Shown one piece after another: positions 34,616 to 52,691 of a DNA stretch of 64,000 bases. This stretch comes from Dendrophyllia cribrosa. Its lineage: Eukaryota; Cnidaria; Anthozoa; Scleractinia; Dendrophylliidae. Positions within the stretch are counted from its first letter, which is position 1. The number at the start of each line of letters is the position of its first letter. The notes under the pieces are model-generated. The model was not told where the DNA came from. It searched no databases and saw only the letters and a program-made list of their open reading frames with translations. A program made the position numbers and the translations under genes. The stretch is from assembly GCA_024195265.1 (NCBI GenBank), contig JAJLRJ010000011.1, positions 24,416,527 through 24,480,526 on the forward strand, read 5' to 3'.

Positions 34616-34888
34616 AGTAGTGAGTAGAGAGCTTCTCAAATACCGTTTTTTGCGCCGATTTACAATTTGTTGCACCGATAATCAATTTTTCCTCACTTCG
34701 CTCGAAAAAATTGATTATCGGTGCAACAAATTGTAAATCGGCGCAAAAAACGGTATTTGAGAAGAGCTCTCTACTCACTACTCGGGATCCTCGACCTCAA
34801 ACACCCGTAAGATGGAGTCAAATGCGTTTTCCCCGAGCCCACCCGCAACGGCAAGCGAGGCATCACCAATTGAAGAAAGCTAAAACCC
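34616..34888 (+). repeat. Polinton left terminal inverted repeat with hairpin and promoter
   Basis: 273 bp, repeated inverted at 52670-52942. The outer 167 bp (34616-34782) is itself a near-perfect palindrome: AGTAGTGAGTAGAGAG pairs with CTCTCTACTCACTACT, with a loop near 34,691-34,704. The inner 106 bp is unique and carries the CCAATTGAA box at 34,866-34,874 that precedes the first gene. Protein-primed replication normally starts at such ends. Confidence 0.9.
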
Positions 34889-34905
34889 CACCATATAACG
34901 TGACA
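34867..34905 (+). promoter_or_regulatory. class 1 (putative early) promoter in left TIR
   Basis: CAATTG starts 39 nt before the ATG at 34,906, and a TATAACG element sits 9-15 nt before it. The same arrangement precedes the genes at 35,319, 35,906, 36,364, 38,125(-) and 52,656(-). Confidence 0.6.
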
Positions 34906-35328
34906 ATGCCCCTCGTCAACGAACCAATGACTGCCGTTGCGTTTTTGAAAATGCGTGGGATTGAGTTGAAAGAAGGTGATGACTTATATGCAAAGAACAA
35001 AGGGACGTTCGAATACAACCCTTGCAGACATTGTGGTTTAAACTCCACCCAAGGCCATTCTCTTGTTGAGCATCAAAAATACGCTTGCAAGAATTTGCGA
35101 ACAGAACCACGACCGAAAGTGCTTTGTCCCGACTGCAATCGAAGATTGTCTATACAAACGGTTAACAGACACTTAAGAAATGGTTGCCCTCCCCCGAAAA
35201 ACACCCCTTGTGATATAAGCCTTGGCCAGTATGAACTGGCATTGTTTGACTCTAAATGGCTAAGCCAGGAGTATATGTCAATTGGACAAATCTCCTCCCC
35301 TGTTTATACCAAACCAACATGGCAATGA
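34906..35328 (+). CDS. zinc-finger protein, early-class gene 1 of the Polinton
   Basis: 140 residues, family not recognised. Two Cys/His clusters: CRHCGLNSTQGHSLVEHQKYAC (residues about 50-71) and CPDCNRRLSIQTVNRHLRNGC, each C-x2-C...H...C, likely zinc-binding. The second, followed by PPPK, resembles CLGCARRVCLSTIYNHKNNGC in the third gene of the cluster, so these two are probably paralogues. I chose the ATG at 34,906 because it follows the CAATTG/TATA pair; the frame upstream runs into the hairpin and is spurious. The stop overlaps the start region of the next gene (ATGA at 35,325). A DNA- or RNA-binding regulatory role is inference. Confidence 0.65.
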   Translation: MPLVNEPMTAVAFLKMRGIELKEGDDLYAKNKGTFEYNPCRHCGLNSTQGHSLVEHQKYACKNLRTEPRPKVLCPDCNRRLSIQTVNRHLRNGCPPPKNTPCDISLGQYELALFDSKWLSQEYMSIGQISSPVYTKPTWQ

Positions 35329-35792
35329 CGGCTCAAGGACTTGACTTCAATCCAAAGAATCAAGACTACTTCGGCGAAGGGCTGCTGTCTTTTGGGGAAT
35401 CCCATTGGGACTACTTACCAGACATGATCCAGGATTACATCCTTGAACTGGTTGAAAGGAGTATCCAGCGTGACTTGGCTGCCAGAACCCTTCATCAACG
35501 CAGGATGAAATCTGTATGCCATTCAATAAAAAATCATTATCACTGGGAACACCTTTGCCATTTCCGTTTATTCACTTCACAAACATGTGATGAATGTCAA
35601 GAACACTTCTCGCCAGAAGTGGACATGGGTATGCACAGAGCCATCTGTCCTGGTATGCCGCCTTATAGAGCTTTACAGCGGGCATTGATGTTTGCAGACA
35701 TCGGCAGTGATGACGAGGAAGACTATGACGAGGAAGACTATGACGGCCCAAGTGCTCACGAACGTTTCTATGGCATTGGTCACTCAACGTGA
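35319..35792 (+). CDS. F-box-like, zinc-finger acidic protein (early-class gene 2)
   Basis: 157 residues from the first ATG; the second ATG at 35,325 forms an ATGA overlap with the stop of gene 1 and may be the real start. The N-terminal segment SHWDYLPDMIQDYILELVER looks F-box-like (LP...I), hinting at a link to host ubiquitin ligases, which is inference. A single C-x2-C...H...C finger (CDECQEHFSPEVDMGMHRAIC) follows at about residues 95-115. The tail is very acidic (DDEEDYDEEDYD). Upstream: CAATTG 40 nt before the ATG and TTTATACC between. Transcribed with its neighbours in the same direction. Confidence 0.6.
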   Translation: MAMTAQGLDFNPKNQDYFGEGLLSFGESHWDYLPDMIQDYILELVERSIQRDLAARTLHQRRMKSVCHSIKNHYHWEHLCHFRLFTSQTCDECQEHFSPEVDMGMHRAICPGMPPYRALQRALMFADIGSDDEEDYDEEDYDGPSAHERFYGIGHST

Positions 35793-35905
35793 TCCAGTTA
35801 AGAGATAAGCCTGGAGGATCTCGACCCCTTACCCGGTCCGGTACGAGATCACCACCCCAGGGAGGTATTGCCAATTGAAGTAATGCGTACCTCTTGTATA
35901 TCACG

Positions 35906-36367
35906 ATGGCGATTGAACGAAGCCTTTTGTGGCTCATTGTAAATGCTGAAATGCAACAACACTCAACTGCGGAAATCAAGGCACGTCGACTAAAGATCAC
36001 TTGCCTTGGTTGCGCACGAAGAGTGTGTTTGTCAACGATTTATAATCATAAAAATAATGGCTGTCCGCCTTTAAAAAGAAACCATCGAGCTCTTATCAGA
36101 CATGAGGTGGATTTGGCGGTACCTCCAAGAGCTGTTCGAGATGTTTTTGCAAACATTAGCCAGCATGAGCTGAATGCCTGGCTTGACGAGCAAGAACAAG
36201 AACCATTTAAAAACAAAAACCTGGAGGCTCTCAACCCCTTACCCAGGATCCGAGATTTGAGCTTTGTTTCTGATTTCATCGAAGGCAAGTCATCACTCGC
36301 AGCTTTTCAAACAGAGTTGTGTGGTTATCACCAATTGAAAAAACATTCACCCTTCGTATACCAATGA
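35906..36367 (+). CDS. zinc-finger protein (early-class gene 3), paralogue of gene 1
   Basis: 153 residues. A C-x2-C...H...C finger, CLGCARRVCLSTIYNHKNNGC, at about residues 31-51, followed by PPLKRNHR. The middle contains helical ISQHELNAWLDEQEQE. The start is the ATG after GTATATCACG, with CAATTG 34 nt upstream. Its TGA overlaps the next gene's ATG as ATGA (36,364-36,367), a stop-start overlap that could allow coupled translation. Function unknown; nucleic-acid binding likely. Confidence 0.6.
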   Translation: MAIERSLLWLIVNAEMQQHSTAEIKARRLKITCLGCARRVCLSTIYNHKNNGCPPLKRNHRALIRHEVDLAVPPRAVRDVFANISQHELNAWLDEQEQEPFKNKNLEALNPLPRIRDLSFVSDFIEGKSSLAAFQTELCGYHQLKKHSPFVYQ

Positions 36368-37476
36368 TGGCGACAACACAAGAGTTCATGAACTTTCTCA
36401 AAGCGAGGAACACTGGCCTGAAACAAAAGAGTGCCGACTGGCTCTCAGCCAGACAAAATACAATTGGGGCCTCTGAAGTTTCTGCCTTGACAGGATCGTC
36501 GCCGTTTGAATCACGGCACAGCTTGCTCATGAAGAAAATTCAGCCAACACATATGCTCAACAATGTGGCTTGTACCTGGGGCAATCTGTTTGAGCCGATT
36601 ATACGCAAGTGTTTTGAGCAAAAACATTCTGTTTCTGTTTTTGGTCACAGCATTTCTCTTAATCTGTCAAGCGATCATCCGCTTTATCGAAAGGTCACTT
36701 GTAGTCCAGACGGATACTTCATGAATAAAGATAACACATTAAATTTATTAGAATTCAAGTGTCCGTTCAAGCGAAAAATAGCGATGAACAGAATCCCTAG
36801 CTATTATCGCGATCAGATACAAACAGGGCTTGCTTTGATTGGTGACATGGTCTCCAAAGGCTTGTTTGTTGACGGCTATTTCAGAATGTGTTCTTTAAAA
36901 CAGCTTGAACCAAGTTTAGCTCACAATTCTTTTCTAAACGCCGGGAGAACATACAAGACAAAAAATAAATCAACTCTTGCCTGGGGGGTCTGTTATCTAT
37001 TCAGCAGACAAAACATTAAGATCAATCAAGTCGAACTTATTGATCTTGGAGCAACGCAAACAATTGCTTTGTTTGAACATGTCATGGGTTTAATTGCCAC
37101 TAAAGAGATTTTGGTTTCATATGGCAAAATAAGAATGACGTTCACAGCCCGTGACGAAAATGCTGAATTTCTACGTTTAAACGCCATGAAAGAAGCGTTC
37201 TCTAACCCGCGTAGAGAAGGGCCAAAACCTGTTGCAATGTTCGCTTGGAAATTGCTCGATCTCACTGAAATTTGGGAGTTTAAAAAACCAGATTTATTGA
37301 GGGAAATCCAAAGGTCTGTTGAATGTTTTCATGATAATCTATCAAAGCTAAAAGGAAGAATCAGAAATTATACTTACACCGAGGACTCTGCCACAACTCC
37401 AAACACAGGCGATGACAAGGCCTTTTTGGAAGCCTTTTTAATGAAGCAAGCGGCAAAGCTTACTCCAGAGTTCTGA
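36364..37476 (+). CDS. YqaJ-type viral recombinase exonuclease
   Basis: 370 residues. A lambda-exonuclease/YqaJ-type nuclease in the PD-(D/E)XK superfamily that resects DNA ends for recombination or replication. Motifs: WLSARQNTIGASEVSALTG near residues 26-44, WGNLFEPI (Glu), SPDGYF (Asp), then LLEFKCP (the ExK pair) and YRDQIQTGL (the QxxxG helix). All catalytic positions are present. The start is the first ATG of ATGATG, just after TTCGTATACC, with CAATTG 32 nt upstream. It overlaps gene 3 by 4 nt and converges with the VLTF3-like gene (17-nt overlap of 3' ends). Such exonucleases are common in large DNA viruses and virophages. Confidence 0.85.
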   Translation: MMATTQEFMNFLKARNTGLKQKSADWLSARQNTIGASEVSALTGSSPFESRHSLLMKKIQPTHMLNNVACTWGNLFEPIIRKCFEQKHSVSVFGHSISLNLSSDHPLYRKVTCSPDGYFMNKDNTLNLLEFKCPFKRKIAMNRIPSYYRDQIQTGLALIGDMVSKGLFVDGYFRMCSLKQLEPSLAHNSFLNAGRTYKTKNKSTLAWGVCYLFSRQNIKINQVELIDLGATQTIALFEHVMGLIATKEILVSYGKIRMTFTARDENAEFLRLNAMKEAFSNPRREGPKPVAMFAWKLLDLTEIWEFKKPDLLREIQRSVECFHDNLSKLKGRIRNYTYTEDSATTPNTGDDKAFLEAFLMKQAAKLTPEF

Positions 37477-38125
37477 ACGCATTATGCCATAAATATTCGT
37501 TTTTGTTTATCATCGCATCAGACATCCCTTGTTGTCTCAGGTAATTTATAATCACTCGTTGTGGGGCTTCAAGCGGTGTTATAATGTTCAGGATTTTGTA
37601 GATCACAAACGTATAAGATATTCTCGGAAGCCGACCTTCTATTTGTTTGAAGACACGTTTCGTTTCATGGATTTGATCGAGAGTTAACTGCACAGGCAGA
37701 ATTTTGTGCTTTTTTATAAGCCTGTTCAGAGCATAACCAAATACATAACTTCGTCCCGGTCGATGGCTTTGTCTGTGGAAATTGTTTTGATGTGTACATG
37801 CCTTAGCATCATCGAGCACTTCCACACGGCCGCATCTTTTACAATAAAGTTCACAAGAATTGATTGATTGCAAAAAGGAACCACCACAGTCATAACAAGA
37901 CAGGAGTCTTCGGTCCAAGCGTTCAATCTCCATGTCATTGTAATGTTTTTGAAGATATTGCTGCCCAATCTCTGCCAACCCCACATCTTCGCATAACTGA
38001 TAAAGTTTTTCCGGCAGGCACAAGCGGTGTATTTCTTTTGTGTAATCGCTGCCGTATAGCGAGCGAAGGATGGCAAATTTGTGTTCTTTGTCAAGTTCAT
38101 TGAGCCGTGCGCCAAACTCAGTCAT
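37460..38125 (-). CDS. VLTF3-like late transcription factor
   Basis: 221 residues. Resembles the poxvirus/NCLDV VLTF3 family, which activates late viral promoters. A zinc ribbon occupies residues about 77-100 (CYDCG...CKRCG) followed by RVEVLDD. The C-terminal half has LPRISYTFVIYKILNIITP, matching the family's final conserved block. The middle is shorter than in giant viruses. TFIIB-like zinc ribbons are the alternative. Upstream on its strand: CAATTG 32 nt before the ATG and a TATAGAC element, the same early-type arrangement as the replication genes. That fits a factor made early to switch on late genes; inference. Confidence 0.6.
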   Translation of the reverse strand: MTEFGARLNELDKEHKFAILRSLYGSDYTKEIHRLCLPEKLYQLCEDVGLAEIGQQYLQKHYNDMEIERLDRRLLSCYDCGGSFLQSINSCELYCKRCGRVEVLDDAKACTHQNNFHRQSHRPGRSYVFGYALNRLIKKHKILPVQLTLDQIHETKRVFKQIEGRLPRISYTFVIYKILNIITPLEAPQRVIINYLRQQGMSDAMINKNEYLWHNAFRTLE

Positions 38126-38428
38126 GTCTATATTTAGAGATTACAATTTTTCAATTGGGGGTTTCCCGCGATTTCCGGTGTTGTGTCTCGGGCCGTATTT
38201 AGAAAATTACGACTTTTCGAAGCTTCTCGGACATACCGAAGCGCCCCACAAATACCGAAGCGCCCCAACTTTGTTGAAAAAAGTTTTTCTGGGGCGCTTC
38301 GGAATTTATTTTTTGAAAAAGTTTTTGTGGGGAGCTTCGGAATTTATTTTTTGAAAAAGTTTTTTGGGGGCGCTTCAGAATTTATTGGCGGGATTTTTCT
38401 TTCAAGATTTGTAGATTAAAACCTGAAT
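38126..38428. repeat. non-coding gap with five GGGGCGCTTCGG motifs
   Basis: The largest gap in an otherwise tightly packed element. CCGAAGCGCCCC occurs at 38,236-38,247 and 38,255-38,266. The inverse GGGGCGCTTCGG is at 38,291-38,302, with one-base variants at 38,329-38,340 and 38,367-38,378. The last three are spaced exactly 38 bp apart, within units containing AATTTATTTTTTGAAAAAGT. It could be a replication, packaging or enhancer site. Confidence 0.75.
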
Positions 38429-39115
38429 TTAATCTCTCAAATCGGACTTGGATGCTGCGGTGAGAAGACTTATCTTTTTTTGAAACTCTTGTTTGACTTC
38501 CTTGCGAAGTTCGTTTTTGAGTTTCTCGAGGTCTGGCGCTTGTGTTTGAGTGCCAACGTTTTTTTTAGCCTTAACACCATCCCTGATTGCGGCTTTGAGT
38601 TCGTGATATTTTTCAACCTCACGAGTAATTATGGTGAATTCTGCATCACTGATTCTCTTGTCTTCCAGAGCCTTTGAGACCAGTTCATAGACAGAGTTGC
38701 GTTTAGCCAGGGCCAGTGTGTAGATATTCTCGTGTTTGGTCACTTTTCGCTCCAATCGCTTGTTAGCAGCTGTGAAGCCAACTGATGACAGCCCACAGAG
38801 GGTCGCGACGCCGGCGAGTGCTGGACTTGCAATTATTCCGAACCCAGTCAATGCAGTTGCAAGGGCCCCTAATGAAAGCCCAACAGAAAGCGACCCAAGG
38901 CCATTCGCCGAGCCAAGGACTAATGATTGGGTTCGTTTGTATTTCTTTGCGACCTGACGGTAATGCTCGGCTTCGTCAGACAGCTCTTTAAGCAAGTCAG
39001 AGATCTTTTTGAGCCGGAAGTCTTCTGCATTGATTTGAGTGATCTCACGCATAGGGTATAGCTGTTGTGTCTCGCTGTATTCGGGGGCCGATGGTAGCAC
39101 ATTGGCAGAACTCAT
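38429..39115 (-). CDS. two-helix membrane protein with flanking coiled coils
   Basis: 228 residues. An N-terminal helical part ends DEAEHYRQVAKKYKR. A long Gly/Ala/Ser-rich hydrophobic stretch follows at about residues 65-115 (LVLGSANGLGSLSVGLSLGA, then ALAGVATLCGLSSVGF), which could form two membrane helices. A charged helical part (KLERKVTKHE-like, DKRISDAEFTIITREVEKYH) completes it. I recall this type of protein recurring in cnidarian repetitive ORFs, with no assigned function. The Gly-rich two-helix core is reminiscent of membrane-active peptides, but that is speculation. The TATATACC box 10 nt before the ATG places it in the late class. Confidence 0.6.
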   Translation of the reverse strand: MSSANVLPSAPEYSETQQLYPMREITQINAEDFRLKKISDLLKELSDEAEHYRQVAKKYKRTQSLVLGSANGLGSLSVGLSLGALATALTGFGIIASPALAGVATLCGLSSVGFTAANKRLERKVTKHENIYTLALAKRNSVYELVSKALEDKRISDAEFTIITREVEKYHELKAAIRDGVKAKKNVGTQTQAPDLEKLKNELRKEVKQEFQKKISLLTAASKSDLRD

Positions 39116-39141
39116 GGCGTGTGGGGTATATATATGATTTT

Positions 39142-39813
39142 TTAATTTAACTCAACTTCAAATTCCAAAGGCTCGCCATTGAAGTTGAAGAGGTTGTCAT
39201 CTTTATCCCTCACTGACAGCGTGATAGAGTTAACAAATTCGCCAGACGAGACGTCACGCAAGACGTTCTGTTGTGTTGTCTCATAAAACACCTTTTCAAA
39301 AGCTTTTCCTCGAATATCAAACCGAGCCAAAACTGTCGAAGGCTTCCCATTAAGGAGGTTTTGTTCTTTATCAACCAGATCACAGTGGATGAAGTAAGTG
39401 CTTGGTGCTCTTAAACGCTTGACGAAGGTTACTAGCATCAATGCAGGTCTTATGCCAAGCAATTCTGCCAGATTATTACTTAACTTCACACTGCCGCTGT
39501 TATTATGAATGACCATGGCTCCATATGGCCTGTTTGTTTCAATTGTTAGATTTAAACTTCTGTCAAAGTCTTTTAGGCTTTCAAAGTCTTTTGTTAAACT
39601 CTCAATAGTGTAATGCCCTTGAAGTAAGGTCGCCTCACGTGATGAACCATTAGTGGGAGGGTTTGCTGGTGAAATCTTTGCTTCTTCTTTCAAAGTATGC
39701 CAAGAGTTGAAAATTGAGCAAGAAACAAGACGGATATAACTCGGTTTCGGCAGTGGGTGGTCGAAGTAGATAGTGTGAGGATTCGAATGTGTGACGATTG
39801 TTAACACAACCAT
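39142..39813 (-). CDS. probable minor capsid (penton) protein, single jelly-roll
   Basis: 223 residues. Predicted vertex capsomer. The N-terminus is a strand-rich presentation (VLTIVTHSNPHTIYFDHPLP) and the C-terminus ends SITLSVRDKDDNLFNFNGEP before EFEVELN, the strand pattern seen at the end of Polinton/adenovirus-type penton proteins. STYFIHCDLVDKEQNLLNGK is another recurrent block. Lies near capsid and membrane-protein genes, divergent from the 607-residue gene. Start supported by TATATACC ending 3 nt before the ATG. Assignment is by pattern and context; no structure was checked. Confidence 0.6.
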   Translation of the reverse strand: MVVLTIVTHSNPHTIYFDHPLPKPSYIRLVSCSIFNSWHTLKEEAKISPANPPTNGSSREATLLQGHYTIESLTKDFESLKDFDRSLNLTIETNRPYGAMVIHNNSGSVKLSNNLAELLGIRPALMLVTFVKRLRAPSTYFIHCDLVDKEQNLLNGKPSTVLARFDIRGKAFEKVFYETTQQNVLRDVSSGEFVNSITLSVRDKDDNLFNFNGEPLEFEVELN

Positions 39814-39856
39814 GATGGTATATATAATGACATTTTAAAATATAATATATACAATC
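39814..39856. promoter_or_regulatory. divergent late-class promoter region
   Basis: 43 bp between two ATGs. The minus side reads TATATATACC-ATC-ATG, and the plus side AATATATACAATC-ATG. No CAATTG box. 5' leaders must be very short if this box is the TATA element. Confidence 0.6.
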
Positions 39857-41680
39857 ATGTTTGGCAGACGGCCTGGTGGATATAATCCTAATTCAAATCT
39901 TGGCATCTCCATCGGAGGCCACAATTATGGGCCCCCACCTCCTTTTAATTCAAACCTAAACGTCAATAGCCATCCTCCATATAAGCCACCACCCCCAAAT
40001 CCTGAAATTGCTTGGTTGAGTTCACCGGAGGCAGCAAAGCTCTACGCCGCGGCCAAGGCTAAGGCGCTTTCAGACTTCAAAAAGCGTTTCCCTCGCGCCG
40101 ATATGTCACACTTTGAAGTGCAAGTAGAGTATGGTGACGACCACAAAACCGCCACAGGGGAAGTGCTTTACAAAGAGGGCCAAGGCTCATTGGCACTTAT
40201 CAGAGAAATGTCCCACAAAGATTGGACTGGCGCCGAAAGAGATGCTCTTGGCCTCCATTATGATGGTGGTTTCCCTTATCAGTTATCGTTGGGGCAAAAA
40301 ATGTCATCAATCCCGGCTATTGCTTTCGACACAACAATAGACAAAGACATGATGATTGGCGCAATCTTGAATGACAAAGAGCAAAGGATTTACGTCACTC
40401 CAACTGAGTATTTCACAACGAAATACAGAAATATCTTCAGGGACACGCAGATATCCTTCACAACCGCCAAATATGGCCGAAAGTGGATGGGTCGCCCTCA
40501 TATGAGTTTCTGGCCGCAACAACTCTCTTTTGCCCTGTGGTGTGCAACAACCGGCTGTGGAATCTCGCGTGACATTCTATTCGATAAGAACTCCAGTCTA
40601 TCTCTAACCACACAGCTCCGGTCGTTTTACCGGTTTCACGTTTATTTCACAACAAGGCGAATACTCTACCAGATGGGTGGGGAACAAAGTATCAGTGCTT
40701 TGCCAGACGACCCTCCGTTCTCCCAGAAAGACAACAAATACAACATCGACGCGTACAAGAAGCTTTGCATCGAGTTCGGTATCGACCCCAGTTCTGACTT
40801 CCGTTATACATACGGCAAGAACCACGGTCTAGGGAATGTCTACATTTGGGTTTATGGAGATGGCCCAACATCTACCGATTACACTTATCCAGACTCTGAT
40901 CTAGCTCTGTTCGATGATGAGCGCGTCACTGACAGAAAAGACCCCAATTACCACGCCAATGGAATAACTTACGTCCGCAACGACCAAGGGGCGGACACCC
41001 AGTTCGAGCACTTTGTGCCAAATTATGCACAGGGGCTAACACAGCCAGGGCTCGCGCGTATGAACCAATCAATCGAGGCCTTTGTGTACTGCATTCTTGG
41101 TTCACAAGCCAAAACCCGCAGCAGCATCATTGGAAGAGGAGGCAGGGCTTTCGAAACGCAGAGAGTATTCTTGGTCCATCTAGAGGAGGCCATAATCCTG
41201 AACGACATCGCAACAAGCGTACAGCGATACCAGCTTGCCATCCAAGCAACGAAAGTTCGCCTGGACTTTGCGACAGCACCCGGAAGCTGGCTCATGCCCT
41301 CGCGCATGATTATCAACACAGAGAGCGTGATCGGGTATAACAACAATCTACAGGAGGCAACGCAAGGGATGAAGCTGGGCGTTAACAGTGGTGTTAATCT
41401 GGGCACGAAAAAAGCCTCCCTTCGCCACATGGACGGTGGCCCGACAAAGATTAATCCACCAAACAGTCACCCATCAAACCCGATACATACACAGGCCACA
41501 CAGGCACAGGGCATTGCGCCCAAACCAAGGACCACAACCCACACACCCACACCCACACCTGCACCAACCCCCGCACCCACACCAACCCCCGAGCCAGCAC
41601 CCGACCCGCATCACGTCTCCAAGGCAGTCGTTGCTGTTGGTGCGGTTGCTTTGGCAGGGCTTTTCGTTTGGGCCAGATAA
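39857..41680 (+). CDS. 607-residue virion-type protein with C-terminal membrane anchor, unrecognised
   Basis: The largest unassigned protein of the element. The N-terminus is Gly/Pro/Asn-rich (about residues 1-52). The central 450 residues are folded-looking, with ADMSHFEVQVEYGDDHKTAT, AIAFDTTIDKDMM, WPQQLSFALWCATTGCGISR and AYKKLCIEFGIDPSSDFRYT. A Thr/Pro repeat linker (about 555-590) follows, and a single C-terminal hydrophobic helix (VVAVGAVALAGLFVW). This layout (domain, stalk, anchor) suits a virion surface or spike component, which is inference. No protease or enzyme motif seen. Convergent with the coiled-coil gene, 6 bp apart. Late-class box upstream. Confidence 0.7.
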   Translation: MFGRRPGGYNPNSNLGISIGGHNYGPPPPFNSNLNVNSHPPYKPPPPNPEIAWLSSPEAAKLYAAAKAKALSDFKKRFPRADMSHFEVQVEYGDDHKTATGEVLYKEGQGSLALIREMSHKDWTGAERDALGLHYDGGFPYQLSLGQKMSSIPAIAFDTTIDKDMMIGAILNDKEQRIYVTPTEYFTTKYRNIFRDTQISFTTAKYGRKWMGRPHMSFWPQQLSFALWCATTGCGISRDILFDKNSSLSLTTQLRSFYRFHVYFTTRRILYQMGGEQSISALPDDPPFSQKDNKYNIDAYKKLCIEFGIDPSSDFRYTYGKNHGLGNVYIWVYGDGPTSTDYTYPDSDLALFDDERVTDRKDPNYHANGITYVRNDQGADTQFEHFVPNYAQGLTQPGLARMNQSIEAFVYCILGSQAKTRSSIIGRGGRAFETQRVFLVHLEEAIILNDIATSVQRYQLAIQATKVRLDFATAPGSWLMPSRMIINTESVIGYNNNLQEATQGMKLGVNSGVNLGTKKASLRHMDGGPTKINPPNSHPSNPIHTQATQAQGIAPKPRTTTHTPTPTPAPTPAPTPTPEPAPDPHHVSKAVVAVGAVALAGLFVWAR

Positions 41681-41686
41681 GTGTGT

Positions 41687-45132: not shown

Positions 45133-45148
45133 AACACACATATATACC

Positions 45149-45411: not shown

Positions 45412-46038
45412 ATGGCTGAAGCAGCTGAAGACCAGGTCGTTTTTGACGAAGTAATGCAGATGCTGGAGGCCACCCCTGGTGCCACACCTCCCACAGGGTT
45501 AGTTGTGGAGAATGACATTCCTGCCAAACAGGAGAAGCTGGCAATCCTTGTTTCAACTGGCAAGGCCAAAGAAGCTATCGGCGTGCAGCTAACACACGAT
45601 CATGTTAAGCGGTTGTCAGACAAGGACGTTGACAAGTACTGCAAACGGTACGAGGCATACATCGGCAACAAGACAACCGAATCCCTAGTTGATTCAGCCA
45701 TCATACTCATATCCAAAAGCGTTGGCATGGTGGCCCCAGTTGAGGATGTGGTGGAGTTGCAGAAAGAACTCAAGAACGACTACATCATCAACCAGGAGCT
45801 GTCAAATCTTGCTGGGGCTATTGCCGTGCGATGCGGACGATGGCTGGCGATTGCCAATGCTGCTCTCATCACAACAAAACACATCAAGTTTGAACGAGAT
45901 CCTGATCACAAGTCTAACTTGATAGAATTGGAACCCCAGCCCCAATCCACACATCCAACCAGAGACAGTGAAGGCTATCCACGCCAGGGACTTGATGAAG
46001 TTGGGTTGGGACCTGTGGCGACCTCTCAGCAACCTTGA
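45412..46038 (+). CDS. 208-residue virion-associated-type protein, unrecognised
   Basis: N-terminal acidic part, then a helical core: HVKRLSDKDVDKYCKRYEAY, LVDSAIILISKSVGMVAP, QELSNLAGAIAVRCGRWLAI. Two moderately hydrophobic segments (about residues 94-110 and 130-150) could be buried or membrane-associated. The tail is polar with Pro/Gln. I recall related proteins beside capsid genes in cnidarian Polintons, without known role. The box TATGTATACC ends 4 nt before the ATG. Confidence 0.6.
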   Translation: MAEAAEDQVVFDEVMQMLEATPGATPPTGLVVENDIPAKQEKLAILVSTGKAKEAIGVQLTHDHVKRLSDKDVDKYCKRYEAYIGNKTTESLVDSAIILISKSVGMVAPVEDVVELQKELKNDYIINQELSNLAGAIAVRCGRWLAIANAALITTKHIKFERDPDHKSNLIELEPQPQSTHPTRDSEGYPRQGLDEVGLGPVATSQQP

Positions 46039-46108
46039 ATAAACCTGGCAGCAACCTGTCAGCAACCTGGCACCTCTTGTAAAAAAATAAAATTCACATA
46101 TATACAGG

Positions 46109-46576
46109 ATGGCCACGCCACTCGAGACGATCCCTGAAGAAACTCCAACTCCAACACCAACACCTTACCGTGTTACCTCTGAGGCACCGAAAACAAAGCC
46201 TGCAACAGAAAAGAACCCTGGCCGCGTTGCTTCTGTCAAAAGGCTAGCAGAACGCAACCGCATGGCACGGGAAGCAAAGAAAAAGGCGCAAGCACAAAAG
46301 CCTGCACCCTCAACAAGCGAAAACAATTCTGCAACAAGCGACACAACAAGTGACACAACAAGTGACAGCAACTCAATCGTTTATATTCTGGGGGTTGGTG
46401 GGTTGATTGTCTCTGCTGCTGGTGTTTATTACCAGCGCGAAGCCATAATGCAAAGGCTTGGACGCAAATCAAACACATCACCAGCAAAAACAATCGCGAC
46501 AACCCCCGCTGCAACACCACCAGCAACACCACCATCTCGAATTCCGGTAAGACAAGGAATAAAAAATATGGAATAA
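46109..46576 (+). CDS. single-pass membrane protein with Thr/Ser-rich ectodomain
   Basis: 155 residues. Thr/Pro-rich N-terminus, a basic Arg/Lys stretch (VASVKRLAERNRMAREAKKK), repeated SDTTSDTTSDS, one transmembrane helix at about 92-110 (IVYILGVGGLIVSAAGVYY), then a Pro/Thr-rich tail. No known domain. CATATATACAGG precedes the ATG. Confidence 0.6.
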   Translation: MATPLETIPEETPTPTPTPYRVTSEAPKTKPATEKNPGRVASVKRLAERNRMAREAKKKAQAQKPAPSTSENNSATSDTTSDTTSDSNSIVYILGVGGLIVSAAGVYYQREAIMQRLGRKSNTSPAKTIATTPAATPPATPPSRIPVRQGIKNME

Positions 46577-46598
46577 AAAAACATATATATACCGCGCC

Positions 46599-46838
46599 AT
46601 GAATCCTTTCCAGGAGGTGATGAATGTTGCTGCAATCGGAGGCGTGGTTTTTCTTTGGTTTGGATTTAACGCGGTAGCCTTTCAAACAGTTTACAGATTG
46701 GCAATGAACAGGCACAACGAGCCCGAGTATGTGTACGTGTATGAGTCCGAGCCTGAGTCCGAGGCCGAGGCCGAGTCAGAGGCTGAGGTCGAGGAGCCCC
46801 GAGTCCGAGGCCGAGATCGAGGCCGAGCCCGAGTCTGA
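46599..46838 (+). CDS. 79-residue membrane protein with acidic Glu/Ser repeats
   Basis: The N-terminal hydrophobic helix (IGGVVFLWFGFNAVAFQTVY) is followed by YVYVYESEPESEAEAESEAE and an Arg-rich end. The GAGTCCGAGGCC nucleotide repeats at 46,745-46,830 make this tail prone to length change. ATATATACC lies 5 nt before the ATG. Confidence 0.55.
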   Translation: MNPFQEVMNVAAIGGVVFLWFGFNAVAFQTVYRLAMNRHNEPEYVYVYESEPESEAEAESEAEVEEPRVRGRDRGRARV

Positions 46839-46879
46839 GTCAGAAAAATAAAAAATCATATGTATACCGGACACAAACC

Positions 46880-47101
46880 ATGTCTGACAACAAGCTTGTG
46901 AAGTCTATCCTCGACGCCGCAACAATCACTGGCCTTGTCGCTGGTATTGGTTGGATTGGTAAAAAGACCGTCAAAGAGAACTTAACTGCCGACCCCAGTG
47001 CAAGCTTAATGAATTATGTCAAGTTCACAGCCGTCATGGCTGGCACCATCGCGCTGAAGAAATATCTCGAGGACCAGAAAATCCTCCCAGACAACTTGTA
47101 A
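46880..47101 (+). CDS. 73-residue membrane protein
   Basis: Two hydrophobic segments: ILDAATITGLVAGIGWIG and VKFTAVMAGTIALKKYL. No known family. TATGTATACC lies 13 nt before the ATG, the longest gap in the late class. Confidence 0.55.
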   Translation: MSDNKLVKSILDAATITGLVAGIGWIGKKTVKENLTADPSASLMNYVKFTAVMAGTIALKKYLEDQKILPDNL

Positions 47102-47118
47102 AACCATATGTATACACA

Positions 47119-47556
47119 ATGGCCTCGATTGCAATAATGGCTCTTGGTGCTGTTCTCAATGCAGCCGCTTTCACGGGTGGTAATTATCTCGCAAAATATC
47201 TGTCTGGTGATAACGGCAAGGCAGCAATGGATGAGAAAATCCGACATGACCACGCCCTGGAACAATACCAAGCGGCTTACGCCAAATACCAGAAGGACCG
47301 CACCAAGCTCCTCGACTGGATTGCAGCCAATGATCGGAAGGAACACCAAGCTAGCAAAAACTTTCAAACCACCGACCAAGCTCTGGTCTTGTATAACCAG
47401 ATGCACCAAACGCAACCAGATAAACAAATCAAAGACAACAAAGAGCCTGTCTTCTCGGACTTCTACAAGCCCAGCACACAACAGAAAAATGGCGAACTTG
47501 CGTTCATTGGAGGTTCTCTGCTTGCTGGTGGGTATGTGGCTTATCGCTTTCTTTAA
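47119..47556 (+). CDS. 145-residue protein with terminal hydrophobic helices
   Basis: N-terminal hydrophobic segment IAIMALGAVLNAAAFTGGNY, a polar helical centre (LEQYQAAYAKYQKDRTKLLD), and a C-terminal hydrophobic stretch (LAFIGGSLLAGGYVAYRFL). Hairpin topology across a membrane is possible. TATGTATACACA leads into the ATG. No family recognised. Confidence 0.55.
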   Translation: MASIAIMALGAVLNAAAFTGGNYLAKYLSGDNGKAAMDEKIRHDHALEQYQAAYAKYQKDRTKLLDWIAANDRKEHQASKNFQTTDQALVLYNQMHQTQPDKQIKDNKEPVFSDFYKPSTQQKNGELAFIGGSLLAGGYVAYRFL

Positions 47557-47586
47557 AAAATTAAAAAAAAAATCCATATATATACC

Positions 47587-47874
47587 ATGGCTGCACCCAC
47601 CTTTTCAAAAGAAGCGACATTTTTACCAGCATCCCCCTGGACAATGCTCGAATCCATCCCGGAAGAGCATTATAAATTGGGTTACTTGCTCAGAACAGCC
47701 ATAACGGCAGACCTTGAGGAATTAACTCAAGCGGTTCATGAATATTGTGAACTAGGCAGAAAAATTAATCCCGGGCGTTTCTTTGACGAAAATGAAGAAT
47801 ACAGAGAGATTGAAAAGCTGCGCAATTTATATGCACAGCTTATCCTTGAGTCAACAACACCTCCGGCCGCATAA
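47587..47874 (+). CDS. 95-residue acidic helical protein
   Basis: FLPASPWTMLESIPEEHYKL, then DLEELTQAVHEYCELGRKIN, ending in a helix rich in Glu/Leu. Soluble, no motif known. ATATATACC directly abuts the ATG. The last small gene before the integrase. Confidence 0.55.
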   Translation: MAAPTFSKEATFLPASPWTMLESIPEEHYKLGYLLRTAITADLEELTQAVHEYCELGRKINPGRFFDENEEYREIEKLRNLYAQLILESTTPPAA

Positions 47875-47921
47875 GACATTGGGCATATTTCACTGATTCA
47901 TAAACTCTATATATACCCCCT

Positions 47922-48911
47922 ATGGAGGCCAAACTCTCAAAGATCTATTACAGCCCGAAAGGCTACTGGAAAGGTCTTGCTGCTGTCAAAAAGCTAGCTG
48001 CAGCGGCCAAGGTCTCTGATGATGTCGCAAAGAAATGGCTGGTCAAACAAGCCCTTTGGCAAGTTTACCTCCCAGCGCCACGCCATATCCCTCGACCCAA
48101 GTTTGATGTCTCTAGACCCAATGCAGTGCATCAAGCAGATCTTCTCTTCCTGCCCCACGACAAACTTCCACACGGGAGAAAGGTTTACAAATACGCATTA
48201 ACCCTTGTGGATGTGGCTAGCCGATACAAAGCAGCAGAGCCTTTGGGTTCGAAAGAGTCTGAAGAAGTCTCAAGGGCTTTTGCACGGATTTACAGACGTG
48301 GGCCTTTGAAATGGCCGCAACTCTTGCAAGTTGACCCTGGGAAAGAGTTTATGGGGGTTGTGACAAAGACAATGGAAAACAACAAAACAACCATTCGTCG
48401 CGGGCGGGTTGATATCCACAGAGACCAAGCAATTGTGGAGAGATTCAATCGCACCCTGGCTGAAAGGCTGTTTGGTTATCAGTATGCCGTTGAAATGAAT
48501 ATGCCCTCTGGCCGTTCGACTGCATGGGTCAAAAGACTGCCAGATGTTGTCTCGGCCTTGAACAATGAAGTAACAAGACTCACTGGCAAGAAGCCCGCTC
48601 AAGCAATCAAAGAGAAAGCCGTTTCTGCCAAGCCTGCGACTCCATATGCTAGGCCTGTTGGGGTGAATGAGAAGAAGCTCCCACCCCGGGTGAGTGTGAG
48701 ATATTTGTATCAGCCTGGCGAGCTGGAAGGGGGCGGAAGGCGTGCGACTGATCCGATCTGGTCTTTGAAGGTCCACAACATTGAGAAGGTTGTCACCAAG
48801 CCAGATGCGCCTGTCGTTTATTACCTTTACGATGGCCCTAAGAGAGGGTTTGTTCGTGAGGAGCTGATGGTTGTGCCCTCGGGCACTCAGTTGCCCCCAG
48901 CTGGGTTGTGA
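47922..48911 (+). CDS. RVE-family (retrovirus-like) integrase
   Basis: 329 residues. Catalyses insertion of the element and makes the 5-bp duplication. Catalytic triad D73 (VHQADLLF), D138 (LLQVDPGKEF) and E173 (DQAIVERFN), with 34 residues between the last two. The N-terminal helical part lacks an obvious HHCC zinc site. The C-terminal beta-rich part (RVSVRYLYQPGELEG, VVYYLYDGPKRGFVREEL) resembles an SH3- or chromo-like DNA-binding tail. All active-site residues are present, so it may be functional. Late-class box TATATACC before the ATG. The 3' end overlaps that of polB by 25 bp. Confidence 0.9.
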   Translation: MEAKLSKIYYSPKGYWKGLAAVKKLAAAAKVSDDVAKKWLVKQALWQVYLPAPRHIPRPKFDVSRPNAVHQADLLFLPHDKLPHGRKVYKYALTLVDVASRYKAAEPLGSKESEEVSRAFARIYRRGPLKWPQLLQVDPGKEFMGVVTKTMENNKTTIRRGRVDIHRDQAIVERFNRTLAERLFGYQYAVEMNMPSGRSTAWVKRLPDVVSALNNEVTRLTGKKPAQAIKEKAVSAKPATPYARPVGVNEKKLPPRVSVRYLYQPGELEGGGRRATDPIWSLKVHNIEKVVTKPDAPVVYYLYDGPKRGFVREELMVVPSGTQLPPAGL

Positions 48912-50601
48912 AACTCGATCGGTTCTGTGTGGATGCCGTCTGGCAGCACCCAACGCTTGTCGTAATAAGCAGAAAGGCCCAGCTTGTGCTGCTCGTATGT
49001 GAACATGGCACCGTTGTGCATTCGGAAGCCCCTGTTGGTGGCCATGTCCCTGTGCCCCTCCAGGGCTCTGTCGTACCTTTCCCAGCGAAGCTCGTTCTGC
49101 TTCTTGTTGACGCCCTTGGAGGACATCTTGACCTCGCCGCTAGCCTCGTTTTCGACGTAATAACACTTGCTGCATAGGGCGATGGCCCGTGTGCCTTCCT
49201 TCTCAAGCTTGAACAAGCCCGGCTCTCTGCCGCTCCACTTGTCCCACGCCAACCAATTCTTCTTCTCCGCCTCGAACTGGGCGCGAAGTTTCGGGCGAAC
49301 GGCATCTTCCAGAGTGTCGTGCGAAAGAGCGAAATACATGCTGTCCGTGTCCATCTGGATGAGCTCGAAGTCGCGCCTGTCGATGAAGTAATCTAGGAAG
49401 TCGTAATAGAACTCCAACATGCGAAGCTTGGCAAGTTGGTACACAACAATGCCCACTTGAAAGGGACGGTCGATTGTGACCTTTTGCTTGCGCAGCTCGA
49501 TCTTGTAAGCATCTCCAATCTCTTCGAGGTCATCGAACAAGGGTGAGCGGAGATGCTTGTCGACCTCGTCCTCGTCAATTGTGTACAACGTTCTTGTCTG
49601 GCGCTCCACGGCTTCGATGAACTTGCCGTAAGCGCTGTTGCCAAGGAGCTTGAACACATCAGCAAGCAGGGCCTTCTCCCTGTCAACGTCACCTTTCCTT
49701 CGGTTGTCGGCTACCTCGCGGACGAACCAGGCGAAGAGCTTTTTGGGTATGTAATCGATCGTGCGGTAGACTGCCGTGATCTTGAGCCCGATGTTGAGAT
49801 ACCACTTCAAAAGGGGGGCGTAGATCAGCATCTTTTTCGCTGACAACACCCCTAGAAGCTTTTTCTGGTCGGGAAAGCGGGTTCGGCCACTTTCTTGGAG
49901 GTAATCGTGCATATGCTGTGGAACAAATTCGTCAGGCACTGCTTGGTTGATGAAGAGCGGGGGAAACTCTTTGAACTGCTCCCACAACTCTTGGGGGACT
50001 TCGATGTCCACCTCCGCAAACCCGAACCATCCGCCTGTATGCAGCCTCAGATTCATTTCAAGAGATCTCGCCGCCTGCTCCGGGGCGTTGTAATGCACAA
50101 CCTTCTCTTTACCACAGGGCATCCCCTGCAGCATCGTGCTTGGGTAAAGGGAGTTTGCATCGAACCCCACAATCCGTTTCGTAATGCGCGCTAAGTCGCC
50201 GTATTTGTGAGAACGTATGCGGGTTTCGCCGCGCACGTGTTTGCGGGTGAAGACCAGGCTTCGCCCGCCAACCACAGCCCCCTTCAGCATGGCGTAAGCT
50301 TCTGGGCCGGGGGCGTATAGGGCTGGAGCATTGCGTCCTCTCAATGAACCTCGCAAGACGTATTGCATTGATACTCCTGGCAAGGAGACCGCGTCTTTGA
50401 AGATGTCCACCCCGAGACCCGTGTAAAAGCCCTTCATCGTTTGGAGAGCTTCGAGGAAGGGAGACACGTCGAGATTGTTATAATGCTCAAGCCAGTCTCC
50501 GAATGTCTTCATACCTTCCTCGTGGAAGATGCGATTGCATTCTTCGTGCTCCTTGGGAGAAAGAACGAAGGCCGTTTTGAGTTGTGAGTACCAGCACTCT
50601 A
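48887..50601 (-). pseudogene. polB: protein-primed DNA polymerase B, polymerase-domain part (after frame break)
   Basis: Carries the polymerase active site. Counting from the methionine at 50,512: motif A GFDANSLYPS (D118), the palm/TPR regions, motif B KLLGNSAYGK (about 288-297), motif C QMDTDSMYF (D388 and D390), and a later KMSSKGVNKKQN. All catalytic residues are intact. The frame is open upstream of 50,512 to about 50,601, where it would meet the N-terminal part in another register. The break is consistent with a single-base loss. Overlaps the integrase 3' end. Replicates the element from its ends using a protein primer, as in Polintons and adenoviruses. Confidence 0.85.
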
Positions 50602-52656
50602 TGGAGGAAGCCCCGGGTAATCCAGCTTGTCAGCGCTGTCAAACCACTCGTATGGAAGCCAGGACTTGGTCTGTGTCGCTCCATACGTCTTGATCCACTT
50701 GTCGTACGTGATGCCTGGGGCCAAATAATTCATGATGTCCAAGAACTTGTAGCTGGGGGTGTTGATGAACATGATGCGCCCCTCTTTCTCCGCGGCGAAG
50801 ACCCCGTTCTCGCCAGCGAGATGAGTGACAAAGTACTTGCGGATAAGCTTGAGATCGTAATGACCTGAGTTGAAGCCGACCACAGGGACTTGGTTGCACC
50901 ATTTGTAGATGCGCGCCAGTTGCTTCTCAGGAAGATTCTCAAGGTCTGGGGGTATGTATTTTACAGCCACGTCTTCTCGGATGGCTGCGCTTCGCCGCTC
51001 CAGGGAGGCATAAAACAGCCTGATAAGCTCATCAGGATCTTTGGAGCAAATGTACTCAGGCTCAGTGTTCAACGTGTCTGCAATGGAGACTGAGATGGGC
51101 ACATGCTCGCTTTCATAAGAGAGAGCGTCTGTCGGCCGAGCTGCCTTGGTCTTGTCCTGGTACGCTTCGAAGTCATAGACGATCGCGTGGGGATATGTTT
51201 TGTTTATTTTCTGTGGGCAACGATCATTCCACCAGGGAGCAGGCCGTTCATGCTCCCACCTTTCCACAACGGTGTACCCAGCATCTCGAAGAAACTGAGT
51301 TCGTTGAAGAGTCTTTTGGTAAGCAATCGTCCTTGTGATTGTGTAGCCCCTTCGGTCAACATGAACCGCTTCGTCCCTCGTTCCCTCAGGGTAACATTTC
51401 TCGCAGCCGTGCCAGTGACAGCCGTGGAACTGAAAAACTGTCTTGCTTTCTGGGTGATAGCCGTCGACTGGAGCCCCACAGATATAGCTCTCACCACCAT
51501 GGCCGCATCTGTGATGGTGGATGTGAATGCCGGCCTGCTTCGCCTCCCACTCCAACCAGCACACGCCCTTGACACCGAAACCTCCTTCTGGGTAAAAGGC
51601 TTTGTCAAAAAATGACTCCGGAGGGAGGATACGTTTCCCGGGGCAGTCGATTTTGGTTTGACCACGAGTACACGTCTTGGAGTGGCGAGTTAAATTAGCA
51701 GCCCGCGTGAACCTCCCACCGCACTCGCCACAAGTGTAATTGTTTGTGACTTTATTGATGTTGGTGATCAAGAAGGAGTGGCCCTCATGAATACCGACAG
51801 TCATGGTTGGAGTGCCCACCTTGTCGTAATTCACAGGGGGGTGAAATAAAGTGAAGTCACCATTGCGGTGAACAAGATATGCGGCAATTCCTTGCTTGAA
51901 ATACCATTCGATTTTGGAGAAGTGCTGCAAATTTAGCTGGCCTCGAAGCCCCGGATAAACTGCGAAGAAGCTTTCCGCGAGTTCTGTGGATCTGCGAGTT
52001 GAACGATCTATACGAGCTCCTCGATGGACAGCCAAGCAACGAAAAAGACAAAGATTGTCGTTGAAAGTGTCAAGAGCAATGACTTCTCTTTTGTTGCGAA
52101 TCCAATCAGGAAGCCGCCCGAGCCCTATTTGCAAGGGTTGTCGGTCAAGAATGACTTTGACCTCGAGCAGGACGGTGCGTTCATAAACCCATTTAGTGTC
52201 AGGTCTTTTGAGTCTTGCGTTTTGAAGACGAAGCTCTTCCTGAGATTGCAACCACTGTCGTGTCTCGGAGAGAGTGGCTAGCCAAGGCCCGGTTTGATTG
52301 TTTTGATAAAAACTTCTCAACTCCTCGTTTTCAGTGTTTCCCAACTTGACTGTGGAGATTAACTTGATTGCGTGTCGTGTGTGAACATTTTGCTTGATTT
52401 TGTTCAAAATTCTGGCGACAAGAGAGTTTTCGAGCCCGTTTACAAACTGTAACGTGATTGTTCGTCTGCCATGTTCAATCTGTCGGTCAACCCGATCATA
52501 GATTTGAACAAATTGCTCAAAATCTAGCTCTGGCGGGTTGTTTTGAGGCTCGACCTCATCGGCAGGCTCGATCCGCTCGATATTTCCTGCCTGTTCGTCC
52601 AGCCAGGCAATCAACTCACGTTGCTCGTCATCACGCCGTCTTCGCCGTTGTGGCAT
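50599..52656 (-). pseudogene. polB: DNA polymerase B, N-terminal and exonuclease part (before frame break)
   Basis: Start MPQRRRRRDDEQ, 14 bp inside the right terminal repeat's inner edge, with TATATACG and CAATTG (35 nt upstream) in front: early class. Contains ALDTFNDNLCLFRCLAVHRG (OTU-like segment seen in Polinton polymerases), a C2H2 finger CGECGGRFTRAANLTRHSKTC at about residue 315, and VFQFHGCHWHGCEKCYPEG. The 3'-5' exonuclease motifs follow: IVYDFEAYQD (Asp and Glu) and VVGFNSGHYDLKLIR. It ends in a premature stop within the segment leading to the polymerase domain. Without the second part it cannot polymerise. Confidence 0.85.
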
Positions 52657-52691
52657 TGCGTATATATAAGGGTTTTAGCTTTCTTCAATTG
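52657..52691 (-). promoter_or_regulatory. class 1 (putative early) promoter of polB at right TIR
   Basis: CAATTG at 52,686-52,691 lies inside the terminal repeat. The TATATATACG box lies just inside its inner edge. Thus both repeats contribute the same upstream box to the first gene on each side. Confidence 0.6.

What the first reader, a model, noticed from the sequence alone, without database searches (positions are those of the whole stretch)
34866..52691. Two promoter classes inside one Polinton: CAATTG for replication genes, TATATACC for virion genes
Six genes (zinc-finger, F-box-like, zinc-finger, YqaJ exonuclease, VLTF3-like, polB) have CAATTG starting 39, 40, 34, 32, 32 and 35 nt before the ATG, usually as CCAATTGAA, with a TATA-like element between. 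Fourteen other starts (capsid, penton, membrane, small ORFs, integrase) have TATATACC, TGTATACC or a close variant 0-13 nt before the ATG and no CAATTG. The split follows function, as in early/late programmes of large DNA viruses. The very short box-to-ATG distance implies almost leaderless late mRNAs or a box acting as initiator. I know of no description of such a code in an animal Polinton.
Basis: partly seen in the sequence, partly recalled or inferred. Interest (0 to 1): 0.9.

Follow-up and report, generated by a model that had tools for sequence, protein, structure and literature searches.

The report
Two-class promoter code in coral Polintons
Virus-like DNA elements scattered through what is probably a coral genome mark nearly every gene start with a short DNA box and add one of two upstream signals, one for replication-side genes and one for particle-side genes, which resembles the early and late switches of large DNA viruses.

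Summary
In the element (34616-52942) the near-ATG box (TATATACC type, weak in two genes) stands before 20 starts of both classes; the ATPase ORF lacks its own. The classes differ upstream of the box. Replication/regulatory genes have CAATTG starting 23-25 nt before it; virion genes mostly have an A-rich tract ending about 7 nt before it, TTTTAAAA in two divergent promoters. The virion-class tract is clearly phased to the box, the early element less clearly. The window's own 627-Mb assembly repeats the rule: CAATTG lies upstream in 85 of 86 distinct replication-class upstreams and 0 of 63 virion-class ones, and the divergent promoter pattern occurs at 460 places against 0 for its reversed control. 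In 8 loci picked only by that pattern, the zinc-ribbon gene (32-34% identical to the window's, mostly one subtype) keeps CAATTG in 7. Best reading: a shared initiator-like box with early and late upstream elements. Start sites, timing and polymerase are untested. Nine searches of open-access papers showed no such description for an animal Polinton.

The parts
34616..52942 (.). whole Polinton-type element
   Evidence: terminal inverted repeats 34616-34897 and 52661-52942, 98% complementary; CTCCC flush with both ends
34616..34897 (+). left terminal inverted repeat; holds the CAATTG of the leftmost gene
52661..52942 (-). right terminal inverted repeat; holds the CAATTG of polB
34866..34874 (+). 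early element CCAATTGAA, zinc-finger gene (ATG 34906); weak box CATATAAC 34892-34899
35279..35284 (+). early element, inverted form TCAATTGGA, gene with ATG 35319; box TTTATACC 35303-35310
35871..35879 (+). early element CCAATTGAA, gene with ATG 35906; box TGTATATC 35895-35902
36331..36339 (+). early element CCAATTGAA, YqaJ exonuclease gene (ATG 36364); box CGTATACC 36355-36362
38150..38158 (-). early element CCAATTGAA, zinc-ribbon (VLTF3-like?) gene (ATG 38125); weak box AATATAGA 38127-38134
52684..52692 (-). early element CCAATTGAA, polB (ATG 52656); box TATATACG 52659-52666
39125..39132 (-). virion-class box TATATACC, gene with ATG 39115
39817..39853 (.). divergent virion-class promoter: box, TTTTAAAA (39833-39840), box; stands before ATG 39813 (-) and the 607-aa capsid candidate at ATG 39857 (+)
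43092..43129 (.). divergent virion-class promoter: box, TTTTAAAA (43107-43114), box; stands before ATG 43087 (-) and ATG 43131 (+)
44380..44387 (+). box AATATACC flush with ATG 44388 of a 64-aa ORF that overlaps, in another frame, the start of the packaging ATPase ORF (44533-45132)
45141..45148 (+). box TATATACC flush with ATG 45149 (79-aa ORF)
45400..45407 (+). box TGTATACC, ATG 45412
46099..46106 (+). box TATATACA, ATG 46109
46586..46593 (+). box TATATACC, ATG 46599
46861..46868 (+). box TGTATACC, ATG 46880
47109..47116 (+). box TGTATACA, ATG 47119
47579..47586 (+). box TATATACC flush with ATG 47587
47910..47917 (+). box TATATACC, integrase (ATG 47922)

Best explanation
A large lineage of Polintons in this (probably coral) genome uses a compact two-class promoter grammar. 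Nearly every gene has a start box, best form TATATACC, 0-11 nt before its ATG. The likely reading is that the box is an initiator at or around the transcription start, so that mRNAs have almost no leader. The class is set by what stands before the box. Replication-side and regulatory genes (zinc fingers, YqaJ nuclease, zinc-ribbon protein, polB) carry CAATTG starting about 24 nt upstream of the box, roughly where a TATA box would stand if transcription starts in the box. One such promoter lies in each terminal repeat and points inward, so both ends could start early transcription. Virion genes mostly carry an A-rich element ending about 7 nt upstream of the box; in two divergent promoters a palindromic TTTTAAAA serves two outward boxes. 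The ATPase probably shares the message of the boxed 64-aa ORF that overlaps its start. Proposed order: host RNA polymerase II reads the CAATTG class first; an early-class factor (zinc-ribbon or zinc-finger protein) then turns on the A-tract class. SHOWN: motifs, positions, virion-class phasing, class split and repetition across copies. INFERRED: that the box is the start site, the timing, the factors and the polymerase.
For: Motif enrichment. Own EM motif search on 20 upstreams returns TATATACC and assigns each a best site 0-11 nt before the ATG (two weak), LLR 79.3 against a maximum of 34.4 in 12 random sets. Held-out test for the early genes. Virion-class upstream sequence aligns better on the box than on the ATG, 11.47 v 8.39 bits, 0 of 3000 permutations as good; early class permutation fraction 0.022, or 0.035 without the TIR duplicate. 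The integrase start codon is the same column in 108 of 120 relatives. Own genome: class split 85 of 86 v 0 of 63, box in 60 of 63 virion-class upstreams; 68 of 69 early for loci found by YqaJ protein alone, the window's own copy L115 included. CAATTG to box is 22-27 nt in 58 of 63 segments, and 23-25 nt in 25 of 27 with a clear box. CCAATTGAAN{1,20}TATA has 3942 matches against 952 for the reversed pattern; the divergent promoter 460 places v 0. In loci chosen only by that promoter 7 of 8 zinc-ribbon genes keep CAATTG, and the neighbouring virion-class gene has the box without CAATTG in 8 of 8. Terminal-repeat sequence outside the motif looks unrelated between subfamilies (by eye).
Against: No RNA data: neither start sites nor timing are shown. 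The ATPase ORF lacks a box of its own. Early-class phasing is weak over all copies: spread of CAATTG-to-box 3.83 v CAATTG-to-ATG 3.93 nt in 63 segments, 3.99 v 3.49 in the 55 found by homology, 2.73 v 3.76 in the 27 with a clear box. Left-side early genes often have degenerate boxes (strict TRTATAC in 11 of 86, loose form in 75 of 86). AAAA lies within 14 nt before the box in 44 of 60 virion-class upstreams and within 16 nt in 12 of 14 in the window, but also in 4 of 6 early genes; in tandem genes it overlaps the preceding stop codon or an AATAAA. The capsid candidate's start is the same column in only 3 of 120 relatives. In divergent L151 two virion-class starts (45149 and integrase types) lack the box. 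Seven of the eight least-biased loci are one subtype. L001, outside this genome, has TATATACC 19 nt before a 451-aa ORF beside polB pieces and no CAATTG. The zinc-ribbon protein misses the VLTF3 cut-off. Confidence lowered from 0.68 on recheck.
Confidence: 0.65

Rival explanations
1. TATATACC is an ordinary TATA box of host polymerase II, with start sites about 25-30 nt downstream.
For: It is TATA-rich and oriented. The capsid candidate's annotated start is not shared by most distant relatives (3 of 120).
Against: The ATG follows within 0-11 nt, so a start 25-30 nt downstream would lie inside the gene; several genes (39142-39813, 39857, 47922, 37460-38125) have no further Met in the first 60 residues, and the integrase start is conserved in 108 of 120 relatives.
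Confidence: 0.06
2. The box is a translation-start context or a 3'-end signal of the preceding gene, not a promoter element.
For: ACCATG resembles a Kozak context (recalled); AATAAA lies at four tandem junctions.
Against: The distance to ATG varies 0-11 nt while the virion-class tract keeps its distance to the box. Divergent gene pairs, where no gene ends, have two outward boxes, at 460 places genome-wide.
Confidence: 0.06
3. The motifs are shared only because the copies are recent duplicates; there is no functional constraint.
For: YqaJ copies in the genome are 90-97% identical.
Against: Terminal-repeat sequence upstream of CCAATTGAA looks unrelated between subfamilies while the motif stays (that set was chosen by the motif). 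L151, with the capsid candidate at 65-76% identity, keeps most boxes. Zinc-ribbon genes at 32-34% identity keep CAATTG in 7 of 8 loci not chosen by it, in two subtypes. Enrichment inside the single window element does not depend on copies.
Confidence: 0.05
4. The two element types mark something other than time, such as strength, tissue, or a host silencing or replication-factor site at CAATTG, and all genes are expressed together.
For: No timing data exist here; CAATTG is a palindromic E-box-like hexamer (recalled) and sits in the terminal repeats.
Against: The split follows replication versus virion function in the copies examined, the pattern seen in early/late programmes of large DNA viruses.
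Confidence: 0.18

Closest known systems
[quoted passage not shown] passages read)
   Same: A TATA-type initiator at the start site (late Inr TA(+1)TA), an AT-rich motif 4-12 nt upstream of it for a part of the late genes, very short late leaders (median 9 nt).
   Different: That virus encodes its own RNA polymerase; none was recognised by Pfam in the 20 ORFs scanned here. Its early class differs (19-nt motif about 10 nt upstream). Here the initiator role is inferred.
Vaccinia intermediate/late promoters (PMC12917281, PMC5294985; passages read)
   Same: AT-rich core element, a spacer of fixed length, a short initiator motif, and class change by virus-coded factors.
   Different: TAAA/TAAAT initiator and viral polymerase; spacer about 12 bp in the intermediate class.
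Mavirus/EMALE virophage promoters (PMC8547959; passages read)
   Same: Small Polinton-related elements with motifs shared by many genes, found by motif search upstream of ORFs.
   Different: Motifs reported per element type (TCTA for type 4, matching the late promoter of the helper giant virus CroV); no two-class split in the passages read; protist host.
Kluyveromyces linear plasmid (VLE) promoters (PMC6211774; passages read)
   Same: Short conserved upstream sequence plus an initiator near the start site in a small linear element.
   Different: One universal upstream sequence (ATNTGA, 20-40 nt before the start codon) and a VLE-specific RNA polymerase.
Coral/hydra Polintons and adintoviruses (PMC11071308, PMC10120064; passages read)
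   Same: Same kind of element; a Stylophora coral polinton is described in the first, and the second notes that cnidarian capsid genes lie outside the main metazoan cluster.
   Different: The word 'promoter' does not occur in either main text.

Membership tests
Polinton/Maverick element | terminal inverted repeats of about 100 nt or more | tested here: met
   282 nt, 98%
Polinton/Maverick element | viral family B DNA polymerase | tested here: met
   PF03175 E 1e-11 in 48887-50512; the gene is split over two frames
Polinton/Maverick element | retroviral-type integrase | tested here: met
   rve PF00665 E 3.7e-6, but 27.6 bits, under the curated cut-off of 32.6; most of its 120 listed relatives carry PF00665
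Polinton/Maverick element | A32-type packaging ATPase | tested here: met
   PF04665 E 2.1e-13, 50.7 bits, in 44533-45132; a P-loop-like start was printed
Polinton/Maverick element | double jelly-roll capsid protein | tested here: inconclusive
   607-aa ORF has 1701 relatives at E <= 0.001 but no credible Pfam or PDB match and a poor model, pLDDT 38
Polinton/Maverick element | adenain-type protease | tested here: inconclusive
   no Pfam match in the 20 ORFs scanned, which leave out the 45149, 47587 and 44388 ORFs
Polinton/Maverick element | 6-bp target-site duplication | tested here: inconclusive
   5 bp CTCCC flush with both ends; sixth base differs
ASFV/poxvirus-type late promoter | initiator at the mapped start site | not testable with these tools
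   no RNA data
ASFV/poxvirus-type late promoter | AT-rich element a few nt upstream at near-constant spacing | tested here: met
   A at -10 to -7 of the box in 11-13 of 14; better alignment on box than ATG
ASFV/poxvirus-type late promoter | element codes its own RNA polymerase | tested here: not met
   no RNA polymerase domain in the 20 ORFs scanned
Virophage-like helper dependence | promoter motif shared with a helper giant virus | not tested
   no helper known; pattern scans of viral contigs gave scattered hits, with 26 of 593 TRTATAC sites at ORF starts
Pox_VLTF3 (protein at 37460-38125) | Pfam PF04947 over cut-off | tested here: not met
   13.4 bits v 25; profile comparison with copies of the same genome that pass the cut-off gives probability 0.5%

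The most novel reading that the evidence does not exclude
The promoters of this coral Polinton lineage are not read by host polymerase II alone. The A-tract plus TATATACC class, built like the late promoters of African swine fever virus and poxviruses, is read by the RNA polymerase of a co-infecting nucleocytovirus, so that an animal Polinton lives like a virophage: CAATTG genes run from the nucleus on host factors, virion genes wait for a helper.
Probability: 0.1. Interest if true: 0.93.

Novelty: new variant of a known kind. Interest (0 to 1): 0.74.

Why it matters
How animal Polintons time and drive their genes is, as far as my searches show, undescribed. A grammar this regular, present at hundreds of places in one genome, gives exact predicted start sites and two gene classes that a single cap-mapping data set can check. 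It also links Polintons to the bipartite late promoters of large DNA viruses, which bears on whether Polintons can act as viruses or virophages in animals, and it gives a simple sequence test for finding genes in divergent elements.

Tried and rejected
Relatives outside this genome: six protein or alignment scans of viral contigs found none, tblastn of the integrase against phages none, genome contigs one 5.1-kb piece, L001. Two pattern scans of viral contigs gave 67 and 38 stretches; used as a control, 26 of 593 TRTATAC sites in those 105 loci stand at ORF starts. Structures of the capsid candidate and the zinc-ribbon protein were both poor (pLDDT 38 and 39), so no fold search was run. Homologue search of the zinc-ribbon protein: 198 candidates, none at E <= 0.001. 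I first took the 916 VLTF3 candidates of the genome (150 scored) as support for VLTF3 in this lineage; the ten 187-216-aa copies fetched belong to another repeat family without CAATTG or TRTATAC, so I dropped that. I dropped an idea that a swapped polB in L147 keeps CAATTG: the terminal gene at that end (L157) matches the 35319 gene, not polB. I first read the ATPase as frame-broken; one search shows an intact 199-aa ORF overlapped by a conserved small ORF. Genome-wide spacing counts for CAATTG did not complete; instead the listed part gives 58 of 76 sites with the nearest TATA 14-18 nt away, 19 expected if uniform (only the 100 rows shown of 3942 matches). Rows dropped: only relatives whose match starts within residue 3 of the query, with an ATG within four codons and 75 nt of sequence before it, were counted; ATPase and the C-terminal polB piece were left out, and the 47587 gene gave none. 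In one search the six stretches quoted (63 of 75) leave out L149 (3 of 8) and L150 (1 of 1, no homologous gene); with them 67 of 84. L107-L114 and L153-L172 were chosen from the CAATTG list and are biased for it; L145-L152 were placed by distance from listed CAATTG sites, without looking at boxes.

Full report
What the element is. Window 34616-52942 is bounded by 282-nt terminal inverted repeats, 98% complementary, with CTCCC flush against both ends. It codes YqaJ nuclease, A32-type packaging ATPase, integrase and family B polymerase. polB is split over two frames in this copy; whether relatives share this was not checked. The ATPase ORF (44533-45132) is intact and its start is overlapped by a 64-aa ORF (44388-44582) in another frame; five of six relatives examined have a 63-72-aa ORF of like sequence at the same place, the sixth (L151) not. 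The 607-aa ORF at 39857 is a capsid candidate by size, position and 1701 relatives, but its fold was not confirmed. The window lies in a 627-Mb, 22-contig assembly. Named relatives of the integrase are from the coral Oculina patagonica, so a stony-coral host is likely but inferred.

Check of the observation. TRTATAC occurs 15 times in the element, 14 of them 1-12 nt before a correctly oriented ORF, the fifteenth being the reverse of a palindromic copy; outside the element 0 of 20 sites do so, and in 105 unrelated viral stretches 26 of 593 do. Shuffled element sequence gives 0.82 sites on average. All five CCAATTGAA in the window are at gene starts in the element. A motif search of my own on 70 nt before 20 starts returns TATATACC and gives each start a best site 0-11 nt before the ATG, weak in two, with a likelihood ratio of 79.3 against at most 34.4 in 12 sets of random element pieces. 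Those control pieces were not matched to the AT-rich composition of promoter regions. The starts at 34906, 35319 and 45149 are not the first ATG of their frames, and the ATPase start at 44533, which has no TRTATAC or CAATTG close before it, was not among the 20.

Correction of the rule. The box is common to both classes. A matrix built only from the 14 virion-class boxes finds its best site 1-8 nt before the ATG in all six CAATTG genes, combined p 7.6e-7, or 2.3e-5 without the two genes that share a terminal repeat. polB has TATATACG, YqaJ CGTATACC, the 35319 gene TTTATACC. What separates the classes stands upstream: CAATTG starting 23-25 nt before the box in the six replication-side genes, with a C-rich run next to the box, and an A-rich stretch at -10 to -7 before the box in 11 to 13 of 14 virion-side genes. 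An AAAA somewhere within 16 nt before the box is not exclusive: 12 of 14 virion-side and 4 of 6 replication-side genes have one. Two divergent gene pairs share a central TTTTAAAA between two outward boxes.

Phasing. If the upstream elements belonged to the ATG they would align on it. The virion-class tract aligns on the box: 11.47 bits against 8.39 on the ATG, and none of 3000 permutations of the offsets did as well. For the early class the window gives 6.66 against 4.63 bits, permutation fraction 0.022 (0.035 without the duplicate). Over copies the picture is mixed: the spread of CAATTG-to-box is 3.83 nt against 3.93 to the ATG in 63 segments and 3.99 against 3.49 in the 55 found by homology, but where a clear box is present (27 of the 55) it is 2.73 against 3.76, with 25 of 27 at 23-25 nt while the ATG lies 32 to 47 nt away. 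With the start codon of the integrase conserved in 108 of 120 relatives and no second Met early in several proteins, this argues that the box is tied to the transcription start and that leaders are very short, against an ordinary TATA box 25-30 nt before the start. The start of the capsid candidate is not shared so widely (3 of 120 in the same column).

Repetition in the genome. The YqaJ protein finds 111 scored copies (1385 candidates). From 30 of these (one, L115, is the window's own), eight 8.0-9.9-kb stretches placed without looking at boxes, 20 shorter pieces and the eight loci of the pattern search, I took every homologous gene start that met the rules given under Tried and rejected. CAATTG lies within 55 nt in 85 of 86 distinct replication-class upstreams and 0 of 63 virion-class ones; TRTATAC lies in the last 24 nt of 60 of 63 virion-class ones but only 11 of 86 replication-class ones, the looser TATA form in 75 of 86. 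Restricted to loci found by protein similarity alone, CAATTG is in 68 of 69. CAATTG to box is 22-27 nt in 58 of 63 distinct segments; in the other five the matrix picks another place. Several terminal promoters of other subfamilies carry CAATTG and a full TATATACC together, although by eye the repeat sequence before CCAATTGAA is quite different between subfamilies (set chosen by the motif). In the most divergent late stretch, L151, 7 of 10 TRTATAC sites stand at ORF starts and two virion-class starts lack a box.

Least biased test. The divergent promoter pattern has 460 places in the genome and 0 for the pattern read backwards; the pattern is its own reverse complement, so forward and reverse counts are the same places. 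From the part listed I fetched eight stretches, chosen without regard to CAATTG. The zinc-ribbon gene there, 32-34% identical to the window's (one 44-residue piece 52%), has CAATTG before its ATG in 7 of 8, the eighth reading CCAAACTG. Seven of the eight are one subtype, 72-94% identical to the copy in L171; L190 is a second one. The adjacent virion-class gene (39115 type) has TATATACC and no CAATTG within 50 nt in 8 of 8.

Mechanism. I think the box is an initiator, CAATTG the site of a host or early factor at about the TATA position, and the A-rich element the site of a late initiation complex. The terminal repeats place one inward early promoter at each end. The zinc-ribbon protein (37460-38125) is itself an early-class gene with four conserved cysteines in two relatives at 36% identity and could be the switch. 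Its VLTF3 identity is not established: 13.4 bits against a cut-off of 25, and a profile comparison with VLTF3 copies of the same genome failed. Factors, timing and polymerase are inference.

Comparison. [quoted passage not shown] a review places TATATA at -1 to +5 (PMC5294985, passages). Vaccinia intermediate promoters have an AT-rich core, a 12-bp spacer and a TAAA initiator (PMC12917281, passages). The architecture here works like these, but no RNA polymerase was recognised in the 20 ORFs scanned, so I do not file it in either system. Virophage-type elements can carry motifs matching their helper virus (PMC8547959, passages). That leaves the helper reading open, with no direct evidence. Nine paper searches on Polintons and adintoviruses (one search was on ASFV) showed no promoter description for an animal Polinton; I saw listings and passages only, and the 2021 adintovirus paper was not held.

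Limits. A single genome supplies nearly all copies. One relative outside it (L001) shows TATATACC 19 nt before a 451-aa ORF that lies beside polB pieces, and no CAATTG; that this ORF is the start of polB is not shown. CAATTG may thus not extend beyond this lineage. No RNA evidence was available.

Noticed in passing
L173-L182 (own genome): Another repeat family carries a full Pox_VLTF3 domain (150 of 916 candidates scored, all over cut-off, 0 of 14 control genomes). The ten copies fetched lack CAATTG and TRTATAC; 8 of 10 have AAAGAAA directly before the ATG.
   Followed up: partly
window 34626-34770 and 52788-52932: Each terminal repeat contains a 65-nt inverted repeat with a 15-nt loop, able to form a long hairpin; a 14-nt piece of its arm was not found in L112, the one relative searched for it.
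   Followed up: partly
window 48887-52656: polB is split over two reading frames, so this copy looks defective while its promoter boxes are intact.
   Followed up: no
window 44388-44582; L145-L148, L152: A 63-72-aa ORF overlaps the start of the ATPase in another frame in the window and five relatives; in the window it carries the box, the ATPase does not.
   Followed up: partly
L147 8587-9899 and L001 950-2955: polB pieces only 25-28% identical to the window's stand beside integrases 96% and 65% identical, which suggests swapping of replication modules between Polintons.
   Followed up: no
window about 39540: A CAATTG inside the 39142-39813 gene stands before an in-frame internal ATG (39516); it recurs in L185, L187, L189, L191 and L192 and might drive a shorter early product.
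   Followed up: no
window 34801-34811; L156, L158, L164, L165: CCGTAAG, resembling a 5' splice donor, is kept in the terminal repeat of the window and four relatives (not in L112), and an 11-nt match to that place occurs in L001.
   Followed up: partly
L001 (genome contig labelled Oligoflexia): A contig binned as a bacterium carries a Polinton integrase and polB pieces, so it is probably eukaryotic contamination.
   Followed up: no
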